A stretch of 8,365 nucleotides of DNA from an uncultured Porphyromonas sp. (lineage in GTDB: Bacteria; Bacteroidota; Bacteroidia; Bacteroidales; Porphyromonadaceae), in the NCBI GenBank assembly GCA_902465775.1, contig CABQOJ010000047.1, positions 1 through 8,365 of the forward strand. The letters run 5' to 3'. The position numbers and the translations under genes are program-made. The notes below the pieces were generated by a model. It was not told where the DNA came from and searched no databases. It was given only the letters and a program-made list of their open reading frames with translations. This document shows, piece after piece, positions 208 through 7,220 of this stretch. Numbering within the stretch: position 1 is the stretch's first letter; each line of letters begins with the position of its first letter.

Positions 208-255
208 AACTAGAGCGTGTCGACTTTTGCAACAGTCTCAACTAGAGCGTGTCGA
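208..255. repeat. 16-bp direct repeat duplicating the pntB 3' end
   Basis: AACTAGAGCGTGTCGA occurs at 208-223 and again at 240-255. The second copy covers the last codons and TAG stop of pntB; the first lies just downstream of the gene. The repeat period is 32 bases, not a multiple of three, so the downstream copy is not a continuation of the reading frame. It looks like a scar of slippage or of the rearrangements that multiplied the pntB 3' region. Confidence 0.7.
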
Positions 256-751
256 TCAGGTCGCTGAGCGTCTTCTTGGCATCGCCAATGAGTAGCGTCA
301 CGCCTTCGCTACGGCTGTAGAGCGGGTTCTCGACACCAGCGTAACCAGGCTTGAGGTCGTAGTTACAGATGATCACCTGCTTGGCTTGATCTACGTTGAG
401 GACCGGCATACCGTAGATAGGCGTTCCCTCGGCATTACGTGCAGCGGGGTTGAGCACGTCGTTAGCACCGATGACGATGACTGCGTCGGTATTGGCAAAC
501 TGATCGTTGATCGCATCCATCTCGTAGAGACTATCGTAGTCCACATTAGCCTCAGCGAGGAGTACGTTCATGTGTCCTGGCATACGACCAGCCACAGGGT
601 GGATCGCGTACTTGACATCGGCACCGCTTCGAGCGAGCTTGTCGGCTAGTTGCTTGACCTCTTGCTGCGCTTGCGCTAGTGCCATACCGTAGCCTGGCAC
701 GATGATGACGCTCTTAGCGTTGTGCAGTACCTCCGTAGCGGATTGGAGTGG
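242..751 (-). repeat. PntB domain III, copy 3 (C-terminal)
   Basis: Encodes residues 689-857 and the stop, offset 192 codons from copy 2. It is the most divergent copy: HNAKS for RGAKR, MDAIND for MEAIND, CNYD for CNFD, and GVTLLIGDAKKT for GVALCLGDAKAT. Its ending matches the usual family C-terminus, where the protein stops soon after the GDAK helix. It is therefore the likeliest descendant of the original single domain III. Confidence 0.94.
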
Positions 752-2815
752 CGTTGCGCTGCTGGTAGCTGCAGAAGCAGACGAAGCCGCAGAAGCTGCG
801 GGGGTACTCTCCGCATGATCCAAACGATCCATCAAGTTGGAGAGCGTTGCCTTAGCATCGCCTAGGCAGAGCGCTACGCCCTCGCCACGGCTGTAGAGCG
901 GGTTCTCGACACCCGCATAGCCAGGCTTGAGATCGAAGTTGCAGATGATTACCTGCTTCGCCTGATCTACGTTGAGGACTGGCATACCATAGATAGGCGT
1001 CCCCTCGGCATTGCGAGCGGCGGGGTTGAGTACGTCGTTAGCACCGATGACGATGACCGCGTCGGTATTGGCAAACTGATCGTTGATCGCCTCCATCTCG
1101 TAGAGACTATCGTAGTCCACATTAGCCTCAGCGAGGAGTACGTTCATGTGTCCCGGCATACGACCAGCCACAGGGTGGATCGCATACTTAACATCAGCGC
1201 CGCCCTTAGCGAGCTTATCGGCCAACTGCTTGACCTCCTGCTGTGCTTGCGCAAGTGCCATACCGTATCCCGGCACGATGATGACGCGCTTAGCTCCACG
1301 GAGCATGCTGGCAGCCTGTGAGATAGGATCGCTAGCGGAACTGCTACTTGCGGGCTGTGCGGTCGCTGCCGAGCTATCTAAACCAGAGAGAATCTGATCG
1401 ATCGTTGCCTTAGCATCGCCTAGGCAGAGCGCTACGCCCTCGCCACGGCTGTAGAGCGGGTTCTCGACACCCGCATAGCCAGGCTTGAGATCGAAGTTGC
1501 AGATGATTACCTGCTTCGCCTGATCTACGTTGAGGACTGGCATACCATAGATAGGCGTCCCCTCGGCATTGCGAGCGGCGGGGTTGAGTACGTCGTTAGC
1601 ACCGATGACGATGACCGCGTCGGTATTGGCAAACTGATCGTTGATCGCCTCCATCTCGTAGAGACTATCGTAGTCCACATTAGCCTCGGCAAGGAGCACG
1701 TTCATGTGACCAGGCATACGACCAGCCACTGGGTGGATGGCGTACTTAACATCAGCACCGCTTCGAGCGAGCTTATCGGCCAGCTGCTTGACCTCCTGCT
1801 GTGCTTGCGCTAGTGCCATACCGTAGCCTGGCACAATGATGACGCGCTTAGCTCCACGGAGCATCGCAACAGCCTGATCGATAGGAGAGCTCTCCTGCTT
1901 AGGCTGAGTCGCAATGGGAGTTTTGGGGGCTGGAGCGTCAGGCTTGGCGGGAGCCGTTGCCTTAGCAGGAGCTTTTGCCTTGCCGTGAGGGATGAGGATG
2001 TTGATGAGCGAGCGGTTCATCGCACGGCACATGATCTGCGTGAGAAGGAGTCCCGAAGCACCAACGACACCACCGACAGCGACGAGGAAGATGTCGCCAA
2101 TGGCCATACCGGCGATAGCCCCAGCCACACCGCTCAGAGAGTTGAGCAAGCTGATGGTGATAGGCATGTCAGCACCGCCCACACGTATGGAGAAGTAAAG
2201 CCCGAAGAGCGCACTGAAGAGCATCGTGCCGATCATGGCGTAGATGAGAGCCGAGGGAACAACGTAGTTGAGCGTGCCGATAAGTAGGAAGAAGACGGCG
2301 ACAACGAGCGTGAGTGAGGTCGCTACATTGTGAAAAGGCCATACGACTGACTTCTGTGGCAGGACTCTGTGGAGCTTGCCCGCTGCGACGAGACTCCCGA
2401 CGAGCGTGAGCATACCGATGATGATAGCGAGGAAAGCGGTGACCAGCGTGAAGTAGACATTGCTCTCTGTAAGCTGGAAGAGTGTCAAAGCACCGACGAG
2501 TGCCGAGGCACCACCGCCGATACCGTTGAGCAGAGCCACCATCTGCGGCATCTGTATCATCTTGACTCGTGTGTAGAGTAGGACGCCGATGATACCACCG
2601 ATGAGGATGCCTGCGATGAGCCAGGGGAAGGTGACGACCTGTAGCTTGAGTAGCGTGACGATGACGCCTAGCCCCATGGCGGTAGCACTGAGGGCGTTGC
2701 CACGAGCAGCGGTTTTGACCTTGCTCATCATAGCGATGCCTACGAGCACGAGGATGCTGAGGACCGCGCAGATGACGTAGTATACGGGATTAGAGATCTC
2801 TATGAGTGTATTCAT
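242..2815 (-). CDS. pntB: NAD(P) transhydrogenase subunit beta with three tandem domain III copies
   Basis: This is the beta subunit of the inner-membrane proton-translocating transhydrogenase, which uses proton motive force to drive hydride transfer from NADH to NADP+. Residues 1-275 are the membrane domain II: eight or nine hydrophobic helices with family motifs MPQMVALLN (89-97), GGADMP (213-218), SLLNSLSG around N225 and IMCRAMNRS (261-269). An Ala/Pro/Lys linker (277-310) follows. Three copies of the NADP(H)-binding domain III then start near 311, 497 and 689. Each carries VPGYGMALAQAQ, HPVAGRMPGHMNVLLAEA, IGANDVLNPAA and GYAGVENPLYS. Spacers 481-496 and 667-688 are Ala/Ser-rich. The family is usually about 460 residues with one domain III, so 857 residues is highly unusual. 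The ATG start overlaps the pntAB stop as ATGA, implying translational coupling. The Lys-Arg-Ser that binds the NADP 2'-phosphate in E. coli aligns with Asn-Phe/Tyr-Asp in all copies. Identity is certain; cofactor preference is open. Confidence 0.96.
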   Translation of the reverse strand: MNTLIEISNPVYYVICAVLSILVLVGIAMMSKVKTAARGNALSATAMGLGVIVTLLKLQVVTFPWLIAGILIGGIIGVLLYTRVKMIQMPQMVALLNGIGGGASALVGALTLFQLTESNVYFTLVTAFLAIIIGMLTLVGSLVAAGKLHRVLPQKSVVWPFHNVATSLTLVVAVFFLLIGTLNYVVPSALIYAMIGTMLFSALFGLYFSIRVGGADMPITISLLNSLSGVAGAIAGMAIGDIFLVAVGGVVGASGLLLTQIMCRAMNRSLINILIPHGKAKAPAKATAPAKPDAPAPKTPIATQPKQESSPIDQAVAMLRGAKRVIIVPGYGMALAQAQQEVKQLADKLARSGADVKYAIHPVAGRMPGHMNVLLAEANVDYDSLYEMEAINDQFANTDAVIVIGANDVLNPAARNAEGTPIYGMPVLNVDQAKQVIICNFDLKPGYAGVENPLYSRGEGVALCLGDAKATIDQILSGLDSSAATAQPASSSSASDPISQAASMLRGAKRVIIVPGYGMALAQAQQEVKQLADKLAKGGADVKYAIHPVAGRMPGHMNVLLAEANVDYDSLYEMEAINDQFANTDAVIVIGANDVLNPAARNAEGTPIYGMPVLNVDQAKQVIICNFDLKPGYAGVENPLYSRGEGVALCLGDAKATLSNLMDRLDHAESTPAASAASSASAATSSATPLQSATEVLHNAKSVIIVPGYGMALAQAQQEVKQLADKLARSGADVKYAIHPVAGRMPGHMNVLLAEANVDYDSLYEMDAINDQFANTDAVIVIGANDVLNPAARNAEGTPIYGMPVLNVDQAKQVIICNYDLKPGYAGVENPLYSRSEGVTLLIGDAKKTLSDLIDTL
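818..1327 (-). repeat. PntB domain III, copy 2 (middle)
   Basis: Encodes residues 497-666, offset 186 codons from copy 1. Its C-terminal half (bases 845-1129) is base-for-base identical to copy 1. Just beyond that boundary it resembles copy 3 instead: bases 1092-1183 differ from 516-607 at a single position. The copy is therefore a mosaic, as expected from gene conversion between tandem repeats. Confidence 0.95.
1376..1885 (-). repeat. PntB domain III, copy 1 (membrane-proximal)
   Basis: Encodes residues 311-480 of PntB. The Rossmann-type GYGMALAQ lies at 330-337, HPVAGRMPGHMN at 361-372 and GANDVLNPAA at 405-414. Bases 1403-1687 are identical to 845-1129 of copy 2, without one synonymous change. 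Over the core from VIIVPGYGM to GDAKAT the two proteins differ only at RSG versus KGG, by eye. Confidence 0.95.
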
Positions 2816-3120
2816 GCCTTGCCTCCTTTCTTGTTTTTGGTAAACATACGGAGCATGCGGTTGGTCACGCCAAAGCCCCCGACGACATTAATCGTGGCTA
2901 GGATGACGGCTATAACCCCAAATATTTGCTGGAAGAGACTACCGTCTGGAGCTATGATAGCAGTGGCAGTAGCTGCGAGCGCTCCCGTGATGGTGACGCC
3001 ACTCAGGGCGTTCATCCCCGACATGAGGGGGGTGTGCAACAAGCTAGGCACATTGCTGATGAGCTTGTAGCCGACGAAGGTCGCCACAAGGAAGATGGCG
3101 ACGAGGATCAGTGGGTTCAT
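2812..3120 (-). CDS. pntAB: NAD(P) transhydrogenase alpha subunit part 2 (membrane)
   Basis: This small integral membrane subunit supplies the alpha-side helices of domain II in the split, three-gene transhydrogenase (Rhodospirillum rubrum and Thermus type). The 102 residues show three hydrophobic helices near 3-22, 38-58 and 64-86, and end in the basic tail KNKKGGKA, suited to the cytoplasmic side. The family signature VPSLLHTPLMSGMNALSG spans residues 24-41, and NVVGGFGVTNRMLRMF lies in the last helix and its exit. Length is normal for the family. Its TGA stop overlaps the pntB ATG as ATGA, so the two membrane subunits are probably made in step. A 146-base spacer with repeats and a hairpin separates it from pntAA. 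No clear Shine-Dalgarno precedes the ATG, as is common in Bacteroidota. Ser40 occupies the place of the His42 discussed for Thermus. Confidence 0.95.
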   Translation of the reverse strand: MNPLILVAIFLVATFVGYKLISNVPSLLHTPLMSGMNALSGVTITGALAATATAIIAPDGSLFQQIFGVIAVILATINVVGGFGVTNRMLRMFTKNKKGGKA

Positions 3121-3123
3121 TGA

Positions 3124-3187
3124 GAGATTAGAGATTAGAAATTAGAGATGAGAGGTTAGAGATTTAGAAATTAGAGGTTAGAAGTCA
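3124..3187. repeat. Degenerate 7-bp tandem repeat in the pntAA-pntAB spacer
   Basis: Nine consecutive units fit GARRTTA: GAGATTA, GAGATTA, GAAATTA, GAGATGA, GAGGTTA, GAGATTTA (one base longer), GAAATTA, GAGGTTA, GAAGTCA. They begin three bases upstream of the pntAB start codon and run into the left arm of the adjacent hairpin. On the transcript they read as a pyrimidine-rich TCTAAT-type leader. No reading frame uses them. Confidence 0.85.
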
Positions 3188-3232
3188 GAGTATGACCCAT
3201 TAGAATCATATCCTCTGACGTCTAACCTCTAA
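3171..3232. other. Long inverted repeat / hairpin between pntAA and pntAB
   Basis: Arms 3173-3190 (AGAGGTTAGAAGTCAGAG) and 3213-3230 (CTCTGACGTCTAACCTCT) pair over 18 positions with one mismatch, and two more pairs extend the base. Beyond a 2-base bulge, TATGA (3191-3195) pairs with TCATA (3206-3210), leaving a 10-base loop. No T-run follows in the operon direction, so it is not a standard terminator. It may protect or process the mRNA, tune pntAB-pntB relative to pntAA, or be the remnant of a small mobile repeat. Confidence 0.75.
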
Positions 3233-3266
3233 CGATAGGGGGGAAGTCAAGTTCCTGTAATCTAGG

Positions 3267-4433
3267 CTACTTCTTGAGTCCCATAGCCTCGAGGGTACCC
3301 TCGTGGATGATCTCCCCAGCCTCCGTCGTGACGACGATAGAAGAGGTGATCTGATCGCTCATGTCGAGGTGCATCTTGCCATCCTTGACGAGGTACTTGA
3401 CGAGGTTGTACATGTTTTGTGAGAACATCCAGGTAGCGCTCTGAGGTAGCATACCAGGGATATTCTTGATACCCTCGATGACTACGTGGTGCTTGACGTC
3501 ACGCTCACCTGGAGTCGTGATAGCGCAGTTACCACCCTGATCGATAGCGATATCGACGATGACAGAGCCAGGCTTCATAGACTTGACCATCTCCTCGGTG
3601 ATGACGACGGGAGCGATCTTGCCTGGTACGAGTGCGCTACAGAAGATGACGTCCATGTCCTTGACATGCTCAGCCAGCACCTGGCGCTCATGCTCTAGTA
3701 GCTCGGGGCTCAGGTGTAGTGCATAGCCACCAGGAGCGACAGCCTTGTCAGCGGGGATGCCTAGATCGATAGGCTTAGCACCTAGACTGGTAGCCTGCTC
3801 AGAAGCTGCAGGACGTATATCAGCTGCGTAGGTGATACAGCCTAGACGACGAGCCGTAGCGAGTGCCTGTAGACCAGCTACACCGACACCGATGACGAGC
3901 ACCTTGGCGGGCTCGATCTTGCCGACAGCGGTAAACATCTGTGGCATGAAGAAGGAGAGGTCGTTGGCAGCCATCAGGATACCCTTGTAGCCCGCGCAAG
4001 TACTCATAGAGGTGAGTGCATCGAGGTTTTGTGCACGAGAGATACGAGGTACACCATCTAGGGTGAGACCTACGACGCCCTGCGCAGCCATCTTGCGTAC
4101 CATATCATGGTTCACAGGAGAGGCTGGGTGGATGAAGGTGATCAGGTACTGCCCCTTGTGCATCATGTCGATCTCATGCTTGCCAAGCTGCTCGTTGAAG
4201 AGTGGCTCCTTGACCTTGATGATGATCTCCGCACGGCGGTAGATCTCCTCAGGTCCTTGTATCAGCTCAGCACCAGCTGCCTGATAGTCCTCGTCGTGGT
4301 ATGCTGCGCCTTCGCCAGCTCCACGCTCAAATAGTACAGTGTGTCCATCAGCGACATACTGCTTGACTGCCTCAGGGCTCGCTGCTACGCGAGCCTCATC
4401 GTGCATAATTTCTTTAGGTACGCCTATTATCAT
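3267..4433 (-). CDS. pntAA: NAD(P) transhydrogenase alpha subunit part 1, NAD(H)-binding domain I
   Basis: This is the soluble cytoplasmic domain I of the transhydrogenase; it binds NAD(H) as a dimer and exchanges hydride with NADP(H) held by PntB domain III. The 388 residues match the length of split-type PntAA proteins. It starts with the family N-terminus MIIGVPKEI. The RQD loop VPRISRAQNLDALTSMS gives R130, Q135 and D138, equivalent to R127, Q132 and D135 in R. rubrum. The nucleotide fold has GVGVAGLQA at 182-190, and D205 of ADIRPAA is the expected adenine-ribose ligand. DIAIDQGGN (294-302) and the C-terminal NIPGMLPQSATWMFSQN helix region (324-340) are also typical. It is the first gene of the operon, followed after 146 bases by pntAB. 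A TAnnTTTG-type promoter lies about 90 bases upstream. No truncation or missing active residue is apparent. Confidence 0.97.
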   Translation of the reverse strand: MIIGVPKEIMHDEARVAASPEAVKQYVADGHTVLFERGAGEGAAYHDEDYQAAGAELIQGPEEIYRRAEIIIKVKEPLFNEQLGKHEIDMMHKGQYLITFIHPASPVNHDMVRKMAAQGVVGLTLDGVPRISRAQNLDALTSMSTCAGYKGILMAANDLSFFMPQMFTAVGKIEPAKVLVIGVGVAGLQALATARRLGCITYAADIRPAASEQATSLGAKPIDLGIPADKAVAPGGYALHLSPELLEHERQVLAEHVKDMDVIFCSALVPGKIAPVVITEEMVKSMKPGSVIVDIAIDQGGNCAITTPGERDVKHHVVIEGIKNIPGMLPQSATWMFSQNMYNLVKYLVKDGKMHLDMSDQITSSIVVTTEAGEIIHEGTLEAMGLKK

Positions 4434-5024: not shown

Positions 5025-6098
5025 CTACCAATTAGGGTCTAAATAAGGAGTATCTTCAAATCCTTTAGATTTAAGCTTAGCTACAAAGGAGTCAAGAGGT
5101 CTTCTCCAGAGTAGATTGAACCATCTTTTATGTCCAAAAAGATCTACAATAGTAGGACTAATAAAATAGTACGTATGAATGAACGCTCTTCCATACCATG
5201 TTTTGGCTAGTGTATAGTCTCTAAACCTTCTAAGTGTCCATACTTGTGAGCAGTTATACGAACCATAAATGGCTGTTGCAATATAGCAACCCGCACGTTT
5301 GTTTGTCAACTGACTTTCTTCTACGACATTCTCCATTTCTTCTGGAAGACCTTCCTTGATTAAGTCAAGATAGTTCTTGTATTTTGTTAGAGCATTGTCG
5401 CTTATAGATGTGCCACAGACATTAAGCCTTTCATTTATTGCATTTTGATAGTACACTAGCTGCTTGGCTAGCTCTCCACATAGTTCAGCTAGGTCTTGAT
5501 TATTGGTTATCTCAGAATCAGGAACGGCTAGCCTTAAGCTAAGGATGTTTGTTTCCTGAGATAAGCACAAATCCATTATAGAGTCTAGTTTTAAGGTCTC
5601 ATTGGTAGCTGTGAATGGGTTTACTGTGCTGTTGGCTTTATAAACGTCTTCAATGGATTGAGTATCTTGAAGCTGAGTCATTAAAAAATAGAAGTCATTT
5701 ATACTCTCTCCTAAGTAATAACTGTAGACGTCTAATTTCATGTTCTCAGAGTCGTCAAATTCCATGGCTCTTGCTCCTGCAGATATGATTTCGTCGCACT
5801 TTAAGTCTTTAAAAATAGCAAGTAGTCCCTGAGCTTGCATCTTGATAAACCACGCTTCTGCGTTTTGGACATCAACTTCTAACGCCTTGTTGGCATAGTT
5901 AAGAGCCTCTTGCCCGTCTTTGGCTTCAATAGCTGTGCTAGCCAGGTCTAATAGATTTTGTATGTCTATAGTCTTATCGGTTCGTTCCCTTTGTACTCTA
6001 ACTTTTGAACCACAATAAGAACAGAAGCCTTCCTCGCGACTACTTTCTAAAGATATAGAAGCCCCACAATTAGGACATTTCATATTTACTAAGCTCAT
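5025..6098 (-). CDS. Zinc-ribbon, TPR-like protein with C-terminal CFI-box-like module
   Basis: This 357-residue protein has no assigned function. It opens with a zinc ribbon, CPNCG (C8, C11) and CSYCG (C26, C29), with 14 residues between the knuckles. Residues 46-95 form two helices in TPR style (EALNYANKALEVDVQNAEAW). Residues 95-265 are mostly helical, acidic and unrecognised. The C-terminal part from C271 (CYIATAIYGS, then LRRFRD, Gly-Arg and YYFISP) matches the CFI-box-CTERM type of module as I know it, an uncharacterised C-terminal domain in diverse modular bacterial proteins. No signal peptide or clear membrane helix is seen. It starts six bases after the upstream SPFH gene, so the pair is almost certainly co-transcribed; the SPFH partner has no zinc ribbon of its own, and this protein may supply it. 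Codon use is AT-richer than in pnt or pck. An internal Met6 is an alternative start. Domain calls are firm for the ribbon, moderate for the rest. Confidence 0.88.
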   Translation of the reverse strand: MSLVNMKCPNCGASISLESSREEGFCSYCGSKVRVQRERTDKTIDIQNLLDLASTAIEAKDGQEALNYANKALEVDVQNAEAWFIKMQAQGLLAIFKDLKCDEIISAGARAMEFDDSENMKLDVYSYYLGESINDFYFLMTQLQDTQSIEDVYKANSTVNPFTATNETLKLDSIMDLCLSQETNILSLRLAVPDSEITNNQDLAELCGELAKQLVYYQNAINERLNVCGTSISDNALTKYKNYLDLIKEGLPEEMENVVEESQLTNKRAGCYIATAIYGSYNCSQVWTLRRFRDYTLAKTWYGRAFIHTYYFISPTIVDLFGHKRWFNLLWRRPLDSFVAKLKSKGFEDTPYLDPNW

Positions 6099-6104
6099 AG
6101 TGTT

Positions 6105-7220
6105 TTACTCTATAGGGGGAATTGGTGGAGGAATAGATCCTTCTAAGTTAATATCAGAGAATTCAGGAAATAAGGATAAGGGTTCCCATCCACTCATTCC
6201 TTTTTTCCAACATAGAAAGTGTAGCGTCTCTTTGTCTTGCACAATAGCTTGTCTAATTTGCTCGGTGCTATATGGACCTTTCGGTTGTCCGCTAATTGCA
6301 AGGTAGTATTCTGCTCCAATTGGTATTGGAGGAGGAGTTGTTGGCGTTTCTTCTGTCGACTCAAGCTGACTGCTTATTTGCTTACCCATATTGGTAGCTA
6401 CACCAAGTCCTAGTCCCGCATTGATAAAAGCCACCCCAGCTCCACTTTCGTTTTCAGCAGCTTTATCCATTATGTCGAAAGACCTTTCAAGCTTGTAGTT
6501 TTCTCTTCCAGTAATCTTTAACCGAGCGGACAAGTTCTTCGCCTTTTTGATTTCATCAAGACTTGGATCGTCCTCAGGAATATTGATGGAGACAAACGTA
6601 AACAGTAGAATGTCAATGCCGAACTCCTTGAAAATAGGTCTTAGCTCCTCTTGGGCATATAAGCTCAATTCGTAAATGCTTGTTGGCAACTCTAGAATTG
6701 AGACTTTGTCACTTGTAATCTTCTTAGCTATGATATTCGTTAGTTTAGAAAGCATAACGCCTCTGAAGTATGACTGAAGCAACTCTTCATCAAAATATGG
6801 CATATTCCCTACTAAGCTCAACAAAAACTTTTCTGGGTCTGCTACTTTGAACCCATATTGCCCATATGCACGAACAGGAACAATTATCCCGTATTGAGGA
6901 TCTTCCAATTGAATTGGGGTTTCGGTGCCCCACTTTAGATTTAATCGATTGATTGTGCTAACGAACCAAACGTCTGCTTGCCATGGAGAATCACTTCCAA
7001 AAGGGATGTTGATTAGTTTGTTGAGCAGAGGAATGTTATTGCTTTTGAGAGTGTAGGTCCCCTCAGAGAAGCTGTCGCAAACTTTCCCGTATTTTACGAA
7101 GAAAGCTACTTGTCCTGGGTAGACAACAAGTTGTGAACCCCATCGAAGATCGCAAGATGGGAATTTATGAACAATCACACCTTCCTCTTGCTCATACTTA
7201 ACAACGTCAATTATTGCCAT
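6105..7220 (-). CDS. SPFH-domain protein (YdjI/virion-core-like) with C-terminal GYF_2 domain
   Basis: This 371-residue protein belongs to the cytoplasmic SPFH family that includes Bacillus subtilis YdjI. Family traits are LRWGSQLVVYPGQVAFFVKYG (two pieces, 25-34 and 35-45), the long beta-rich SPFH core to about residue 215, a charged helix (220-257), then the glycine-rich GAGVAFINAGLGLGVATNMG (260-279). After a Thr/Pro linker, residues 304-352 fit GYF_2/DUF4339: YYLAISGQPKGPYSTEQI, then CWKKGMSGWEPL. The tail is PPPIPPIE. SPFH proteins form oligomeric scaffolds at membranes, and YdjI acts with the phage-shock protein PspA; whether that holds here is inference, as no pspA is in the window. 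No transmembrane helix is evident. Many family members carry a C-terminal zinc ribbon; here GYF_2 takes that place and the ribbon is in the next gene. Low GC suggests acquisition. Confidence 0.88.
   Translation of the reverse strand: MAIIDVVKYEQEEGVIVHKFPSCDLRWGSQLVVYPGQVAFFVKYGKVCDSFSEGTYTLKSNNIPLLNKLINIPFGSDSPWQADVWFVSTINRLNLKWGTETPIQLEDPQYGIIVPVRAYGQYGFKVADPEKFLLSLVGNMPYFDEELLQSYFRGVMLSKLTNIIAKKITSDKVSILELPTSIYELSLYAQEELRPIFKEFGIDILLFTFVSINIPEDDPSLDEIKKAKNLSARLKITGRENYKLERSFDIMDKAAENESGAGVAFINAGLGLGVATNMGKQISSQLESTEETPTTPPPIPIGAEYYLAISGQPKGPYSTEQIRQAIVQDKETLHFLCWKKGMSGWEPLSLFPEFSDINLEGSIPPPIPPIE

What the first reader, a model, noticed from the sequence alone, without database searches (positions are those of the whole stretch)
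242..1885. PntB carries three tandem NADP(H)-binding domain III copies
Seen directly: after one membrane domain the reading frame encodes three full domain III units (residues 311-480, 497-666, 689-857), each with GYGMALAQ, HPVAGRMPGHMN, GANDVLNPAA and GYAGVENPLY intact. Known transhydrogenases have one domain III per PntB, which alternates between domain I (hydride transfer) and domain II (proton gating). Three mobile copies on one membrane base would change the stoichiometry to 1:1:3 for domains I, II and III, and could let one copy recharge while another reacts, much like multiple lipoyl domains in a 2-oxoacid dehydrogenase E2. I know of no described enzyme with this layout.
Basis: partly seen in the sequence, partly recalled or inferred. 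Interest (0 to 1): 0.88.

Follow-up and report, generated by a model that had tools for sequence, protein, structure and literature searches.

The report
Transhydrogenase with three tethered nucleotide domains
A Porphyromonas-like bacterium encodes a membrane transhydrogenase with three copies of its mobile nucleotide-binding domain instead of one, a real layout that recurs in other bacteria with one to five copies, and in the relatives examined the residues that normally recognise NADP are replaced.

Summary
Window 242-2815 (minus strand) is one 857-residue frame: a PntB membrane domain plus three full domain III (dIII) units (308-477, 494-663, 686-855), behind pntAA and pntAB. It is not an assembly error: related PntBs in other genomes, some on contigs over 2 Mb, carry 2-5 dIII units (Porphyromonadaceae, other Bacteroidales, Clostridia, Desulfovibrio, Riflebacteria). 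Copy number changes at least 41 times on one tree of 111 genes. Copies show purifying selection and keep conserved residues, although a stop codon in any extra copy would leave an ordinary one-dIII PntB; so the extra copies are probably used. The likely mechanism, inferred only, is several tethered dIII carriers sharing one membrane base. A correction: where 24 of 24 canonical controls have K-R-S/G in dIII, 94 of 94 PntBs of this branch have N-x-D, so 'NADP(H)-binding' is unproven. Absence of glucose-6-phosphate dehydrogenase (0 of 10 genomes) and some neighbours argue for NADPH supply; the motif argues for NAD(H). Ten library searches found no paper describing this layout. Verdict: a new variant of a known enzyme, widespread and apparently undescribed.

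The parts
1991..2815 (-). PntB membrane domain (dII), residues 1-275; nine predicted helices of 20 or more residues
1895..1990 (-). first tether, residues 276-307, Ala/Pro/Lys-rich, pLDDT under 50 over 276-308
1385..1894 (-). domain III copy 1, residues 308-477
1490..1498 (-). N-F-D (residues 440-442) at the place of canonical K-R-S, copy 1
1337..1384 (-). second tether, residues 478-493, Ala/Ser-rich
827..1336 (-). domain III copy 2, residues 494-663; 285-bp exact match with copy 1
932..940 (-). N-F-D (residues 626-628), copy 2
761..826 (-). third tether, residues 664-685, Ala/Ser-rich
251..760 (-). domain III copy 3, residues 686-855
356..364 (-). N-Y-D (residues 818-820), copy 3
242..250 (-). 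last two residues and stop codon of pntB
2812..3120 (-). pntAB (alpha-2, 4TM part of the membrane domain), 102 aa, overlaps pntB by 4 bp
3267..4433 (-). pntAA (alpha-1, NAD(H)-binding domain I), 388 aa; the residues that I recall as the RQD loop and the NAD-site Asp are conserved

Best explanation
This is a three-subunit membrane transhydrogenase (PntAA-PntAB-PntB) of a distinct N-x-D branch of PntB, in which dIII has been amplified, presumably by unequal recombination, and kept similar by gene conversion. Shown here: three intact dIII units under purifying selection on one dII, with linkers of low predicted order; recurrent copy-number change from 1 to 5 in bacteria of several phyla. Inferred: each dIII binds a nicotinamide nucleotide and takes turns docking on domain I (hydride transfer) and on dII (proton-coupled binding and release). 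Several tethered carriers per base let one recharge while another reacts and raise the local carrier concentration, as tandem lipoyl or acyl-carrier domains are thought to do (recalled). A dimer would hold 2 dI, 2 dII and 6 dIII. The carried nucleotide is most likely still NADP(H), bound without the KRS motif, but this is unproven; NAD(H) is the serious alternative.
Against: No biochemical data. The KRS motif is missing in 94 of 94 PntBs of the branch. Single-dIII members of the branch exist and presumably work. Only one dIII docks tightly on a dI dimer in known enzymes (PMC5742237 passages), so extra copies may not raise flux. 7 of 10 genomes also have an NfnB/GltA-like gene over cut-off, another possible NADPH route. 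Gene conversion could help keep copies intact without use. Parsimony counts on a quick tree with open forks, and collapsed assemblies, can inflate the number of copy-number changes.
Confidence: 0.58

Rival explanations
1. The N-x-D branch has switched dIII to NAD(H) (or another nucleotide). Since NADH-to-NAD+ exchange gains nothing, dIII would then keep its nucleotide and act as a tethered hydride carrier for an unknown partner, or the enzyme would serve to dissipate or sense the proton gradient.
For: K-R-S/G is N-x-D in 94 of 94 branch members against 24 of 24 K-R-S/G in canonical controls, with no alignment gap (groups were split by the first letter of this motif, but also fall on two sides of one fully supported branch). 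Asp at the ribose end of a Rossmann-type site usually marks NAD(H) (general knowledge). Loops D and E are said to set NADP(H) over NAD(H) specificity (PMC9529548 passages). Domain I keeps its Asp and the recalled RQD residues in both groups, so it shows no swap to NADP(H).
Against: The other dIII signature motifs read are shared with canonical PntB. The Asp is not absolute: 5 of 734 units in the listed proteins have Asn there, four of them all the copies of one protein. Diaminopimelate dehydrogenase neighbours in one sub-branch. No glucose-6-phosphate dehydrogenase in 10 of 10 genomes. No neighbour common to the branch was found (crude gene calling). No genome shows both a high-scoring array and a separate complete low-scoring dIII, as if the two types replace each other (motifs were not read in most of these genomes).
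Confidence: 0.27
2. The extra dIII copies are neutral by-products of slippage between repeats, with no function.
For: Copy number is labile. Neighbouring copies share exact repeats (median 53 nt, up to 359, in 76 genes). Single-dIII branch members exist.
Against: A stop codon or frameshift in any extra copy would leave a normal one-dIII PntB, yet frames stay open in most complete genes and copies stay intact. One Bacillota sub-branch keeps copies 49-65% alike within a gene while the best match in another gene is 74-92%, so distinct copies were conserved for long.
Confidence: 0.1
3. Assembly or sequencing artefact.
For: Near-identical tandem repeats are prone to assembly error; 10 of 30 matching genomes of the family are fragmented at dIII, two Clostridia loci have runs of N inside the array, and one locus, L036, is split between two frames.
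Against: The layout recurs in many clusters (three with 122, 78 and 290 member sequences) and on long contigs: 4 copies in P0101 (longest contig 3,695,371) and P0084 (2,404,857), 3 in P0137 (3,525,959). The window copies differ from each other. Collapse of repeats would lose copies, not add them.
Confidence: 0.02
4. The protein is cleaved after translation into one-dIII PntB and free dIII domains.
For: Ala/Pro/Ser-rich linkers with low predicted order.
Against: None tested; I did not search for cleavage motifs.
Confidence: 0.03

Closest known systems
Proton-translocating nicotinamide nucleotide transhydrogenase (PntAB; E. coli, R. rubrum, T. thermophilus, mammalian NNT)
   Different: 2-5 dIII units in multi-copy members instead of one; K-R-S replaced by N-x-D; A/P/K/E-rich first tether (P 0.13, G 0.05 in 63 genes) against G-rich in canonical controls (P 0.02, G 0.20 in 23 genes).
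Single-dIII members of the same N-x-D branch (Prevotellaceae and other Bacteroidales, some Clostridia)
   Same: Same branch and same N-x-D motif.
   Different: One dIII; nine Bacteroidales members instead have a long dII-dIII tether (81-97 residues by my measure, against 45-51 in canonical).
Multi-lipoyl E2 of 2-oxoacid dehydrogenases and tandem acyl-carrier domains (recalled, no call)
   Same: Works like: repeated mobile carrier domains on Ala/Pro-rich tethers serving shared active sites; copy number varies between species.
   Different: No homology; the carrier would hold a non-covalent nucleotide and must also dock on a membrane proton channel.

Membership tests
Proton-translocating transhydrogenase (Pnt) | dI, dII and dIII encoded together (pntAA-pntAB-pntB) | tested here: met
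   all three parts found in 116 of 120 loci examined
Proton-translocating transhydrogenase (Pnt) | dI RQD loop and NAD-site Asp (residues recalled, not from a call) | tested here: met
   R130, Q135, D138 and D205 conserved in 87 of 87 branch and 21 of 21 canonical PntAA
Proton-translocating transhydrogenase (Pnt) | dIII fold with GYGxA, HPVAGRxPGHMN, GAND, GYAGV motifs | tested here: met
Proton-translocating transhydrogenase (Pnt) | KRS motif of the NADP(H) site in dIII | tested here: not met
   N-x-D in 276 of 277 non-canonical dIII units and N-L-N in one; 94 of 94 first units; 729 of 734 units of the listed proteins, the other five with Asn for Asp
Proton-translocating transhydrogenase (Pnt) | One dIII per protomer | tested here: not met
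   three copies
Proton-translocating transhydrogenase (Pnt) | Histidine in the proton channel (alpha-2 His42 in T. thermophilus, beta His91 in E. coli) | tested here: inconclusive
   Absent at both places in the window, but also in 22 of 24 canonical controls (one has the beta-91, another the alpha-2-42 His); PMC5742237 section 6 says its position may shift
Proton-translocating transhydrogenase (Pnt) | Proton-coupled NADH to NADP+ hydride transfer | not testable with these tools
   needs purified enzyme
Multi-lipoyl E2-like carrier system (functional analogy) | Repeated carrier domains, all competent | tested here: inconclusive
   Copies keep conserved residues; competence not measured

The most novel reading that the evidence does not exclude
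The N-x-D branch is a second kind of membrane transhydrogenase whose dIII does not carry NADP(H). Its one to five dIII domains are tethered hydride carriers holding NAD(H) or another nucleotide, charged at domain I with help of the proton gradient and discharged to a further partner.
Probability: 0.15. Interest if true: 0.93.

Novelty: new variant of a known kind. Interest (0 to 1): 0.72.

Why it matters
How the two dIII domains of a transhydrogenase dimer share work between hydride transfer and proton gating is still being worked out. Natural enzymes with one to five dIII on the same base are a ready-made series for testing whether dIII mobility, recharging or docking limits the rate. The changed nucleotide motif means that enzymes annotated as NAD(P) transhydrogenase in many Bacteroidales, Clostridia and Desulfovibrio rest on no reading of their NADP site, which bears on models of their redox metabolism.

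Tried and rejected
Loss of the channel histidine as a branch feature: rejected, because 22 of 24 canonical controls lack it at both known places too. Frame breaks in two Clostridia loci as insertions in dIII: rejected, they are runs of N (gap or mask, I cannot tell). Long tether as a general substitute for extra copies: rejected, because tethers of 81-97 residues are confined to nine related single-dIII Bacteroidales genes, other single-dIII genes have 46-61, and three multi-copy genes have 96-109 (L036 there is a frame-split multi-copy gene). Residues that mark first against last copies in general: only weak directional signals, which I put down to two clusters of related genes without a formal test. 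Conserved gene neighbour for the branch: none; the largest cluster (9 loci) proved to be antisense ORFs over pntAA, the next spans 8 of 77 loci (crude gene calling). Canonical PntB with several dIII: none among the 120 best hits of one canonical query, all with one dIII and 457-479 aa, although the length rule allowed up to 831 aa (the KRS motif was read in 110 of 120, the pattern failed in 10). Six or more copies: none among the listed hits; the longest is 1234 aa with five. Rows dropped: six ORFs with partial dIII (L023, L024, L065, L074, L088, L099) and L036, L068 left out of the 111-row tree, which used 18 of 201 listed proteins; L088 and L099, motif unreadable, left out of the 24/94 split; L101-L104, duplicates, left out. 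Papers: ten searches, six of them aimed at repeated domain III or at PntB in Porphyromonas, found no description of multi-dIII PntB; the library lacks most subscription papers.

Full report
What is there. The minus-strand ORF 242-2815 encodes 857 residues. Pfam PNTB matches in three stretches, and NCBIfam names it the beta subunit of Re/Si-specific transhydrogenase. Residues 1-275 are the membrane domain; 308-477, 494-663 and 686-855 are three full domain III (dIII) units, identical at 157, 145 and 147 of 170 residues in the pairs 1v2, 1v3 and 2v3. Upstream on the same strand lie pntAB (2812-3120) and pntAA (3267-4433), the three-gene form of the enzyme. The closest loci with a species name are two Porphyromonas uenonis genomes (95% over the best segment). 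No whole genome is held for the window.

Is it real? Yes. Of the 201 related proteins listed by two searches, 8 have two dIII, 61 three, 125 four and 7 five (the lists are ranked by score and so favour many copies). P0084 and P0101 (four copies) and P0137 (three) come from clusters whose longest contigs are 2.4, 3.7 and 3.5 Mb. In the family of P. uenonis, 30 of 38 genomes have dIII matches. By my count of the table, 20 of the 30 have at least two complete copies and the other 10 have only partial matches or one complete match beside partial ones. In two Clostridia loci the array contains runs of N. I infer that draft assemblies tend to lose copies rather than invent them.

How widespread is it? 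Counts are genomes with a dIII match, of all searched. Phylum of P. uenonis: 137 of 296, of which 136 have one match and only P. uenonis itself has several. Its order: 75 of 295, of which 70 have one match and 5 have two to four. Phylum of a Clostridia genome: 34 of 299; by my count 13 have two or more complete copies, 13 have one complete match and 8 are fragmented. Order of a Desulfovibrio: 16 of 150, 12 with three or more matches (two of them partly fragmented) and 4 with one. Loci from genome contigs add Riflebacteria, Dysgonomonas, Parabacteroides and Prevotellaceae. The layout is thus rare in Bacteroidota at large, usual in Porphyromonadaceae and frequent among the few Clostridia and Desulfovibrionales that have the gene.

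A separate branch with a changed nucleotide motif. Aligned without gaps to R. rubrum dIII, the window reads IICNFDLKPGYAGVEN where R. rubrum reads LFIKRSMASGYAGVEN. KRS (PntB 424-426) belongs to the NADPH site, and loops D and E are said to set NADP(H) over NAD(H) specificity (passages of PMC9529548). Of 120 aligned PntBs, 2 are unreadable there; 24 have K-R-S or K-R-G and 94 have N-x-D. I split the groups by the first letter of the motif, so Asn against Lys is by definition, but Asp in 94 of 94 and Arg in 24 of 24 are not. The two groups are the two sides of one branch with full support (the motif columns were part of that tree, but the membrane-domain tree also sets its four canonical rows apart). 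At unit level, 276 of 277 non-canonical dIII units have N-x-D. Among the 734 units of the 201 listed proteins 729 have N-x-D and five have Asn for Asp: all four copies of P0108 and one of P0142. Several dIII per gene were seen only in this branch: one canonical query listed 120 of 120 proteins with one dIII, and the 24 single-dIII canonical genes were fetched, whose other low-scoring genomes also show one match. Bit score alone does not separate the types cleanly: one N-x-D gene, L098, scores 254.

Are the extra copies used? At 20 positions that I picked as conserved, 261 units of 91 multi-copy genes show two deviations, both in one unit. Copies differ mainly at silent sites: median pN/pS 0.12 and none at or above 1 in 170 pairs with pS over 0.05, from 73 genes. 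Since any stop codon in an extra copy would leave a normal one-dIII PntB, open frames over such distances imply selection for the extra domains (inference). Gene conversion also acts: the 16 codon differences between window copies 1 and 2 all fall in the first 54 of 145 core codons (p 2.7e-8), and these copies share a 285-bp exact match. Copy 3 keeps its own residues across the window and the two P. uenonis genomes: pN 0.012 to copy 3 of either, against 0.034-0.038 to their copies 1 and 2. Copy number is labile: at least 41 changes on a quick tree of 111 genes, with two, three and four copies in nine close relatives including the window, and at least 33 on another tree of 118 rows; unresolved forks and collapsed assemblies may inflate both. 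In 45 of 91 multi-copy genes the mean identity within the gene exceeds the best identity to any unit of another gene in the set, in 46 it does not (this depends on how close the nearest gene is). A Bacillota sub-branch (L033, L057, L059-L062, L064, L066, L067) keeps copies that are only 49-65% alike within a gene while the best match in another gene is 74-92%, so there the copies have diverged and been conserved apart, though all keep N-x-D.

Mechanism. In known enzymes one dIII of the dimer faces domain I while the other faces the membrane domain, and one dIII binds a dI dimer tightly (Kd under 60 nM), a second weakly (about 10 uM) (passages of PMC5742237). The simplest reading is that several tethered dIII take turns at the same docking places. 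This is inference. The nucleotide is the main uncertainty. For NADP(H): the other dIII signature motifs are unchanged; none of 10 genomes of the branch has glucose-6-phosphate dehydrogenase against 9 of 14 controls, and 6 of 10 lack the isocitrate dehydrogenase family PF00180, found in 14 of 14 controls; in seven Bacillota loci a diaminopimelate dehydrogenase family gene lies upstream of pntAA on the same strand (three checked), an enzyme I recall as NADP-linked. For NAD(H): the nearly invariant Asp in place of the KRS serine. Against a simple reading for NADPH supply, 7 of 10 genomes also hold an NfnB/GltA-like gene over cut-off.

Novelty. Ten searches of the open library found no description of a PntB with several dIII domains. 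Of the papers I saw: passages and sections 4 and 6 of PMC5742237; passages of PMC7614955, PMC9529548 and PMC4478896; a term look-up without hits in PMC4518329; search listings for the rest. Where databases name these proteins they call them simply transhydrogenase subunit beta or the like.

Noticed in passing
window 3121-3266: Between pntAA and pntAB lies an AT/GA-rich array of 7-base units (consensus AGAGATT, 8.4 copies at 3123-3182). An intergenic array inside the operon might affect expression of the downstream genes.
   Followed up: no
window 5025-7220: Two adjacent genes, a protein with a weak zinc-ribbon match (5025-6098) and an SPFH/Band 7 protein with a GYF_2 domain (6105-7220), with no evident link to pnt.
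   Followed up: no
L033, L057, L059-L062, L064, L066, L067: Bacillota PntBs with two or three dIII that have diverged within the gene (49-65% identity) while each copy is conserved between genes; the last copy reads NLDRxPGY and GDAA, GDAS or GSAS in place of GDAK. Possible division of labour between copies.
   Followed up: partly
L069-L073, L075, L077, L079, L080: Single-dIII Bacteroidales genes of the same branch have unusually long dII-dIII tethers (81-97 residues by the measure, against 45-51 in canonical genes).
   Followed up: partly
PntB and PntAB: The known proton-channel histidine positions are empty in nearly all genes examined, canonical ones included (His at beta-91 in 2 of 94 branch and 1 of 24 canonical; His at alpha-2-42 in 0 of 91 and 1 of 24). 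Where these enzymes keep a proton-gating group is unclear.
   Followed up: partly
P0108: All four dIII copies of this protein carry N-Y-N instead of N-x-D, as if one change had spread through the array.
   Followed up: no
G990: One Desulfovibrionales genome carries two multi-dIII pntB genes, with four and three dIII matches at different places of one contig.
   Followed up: no
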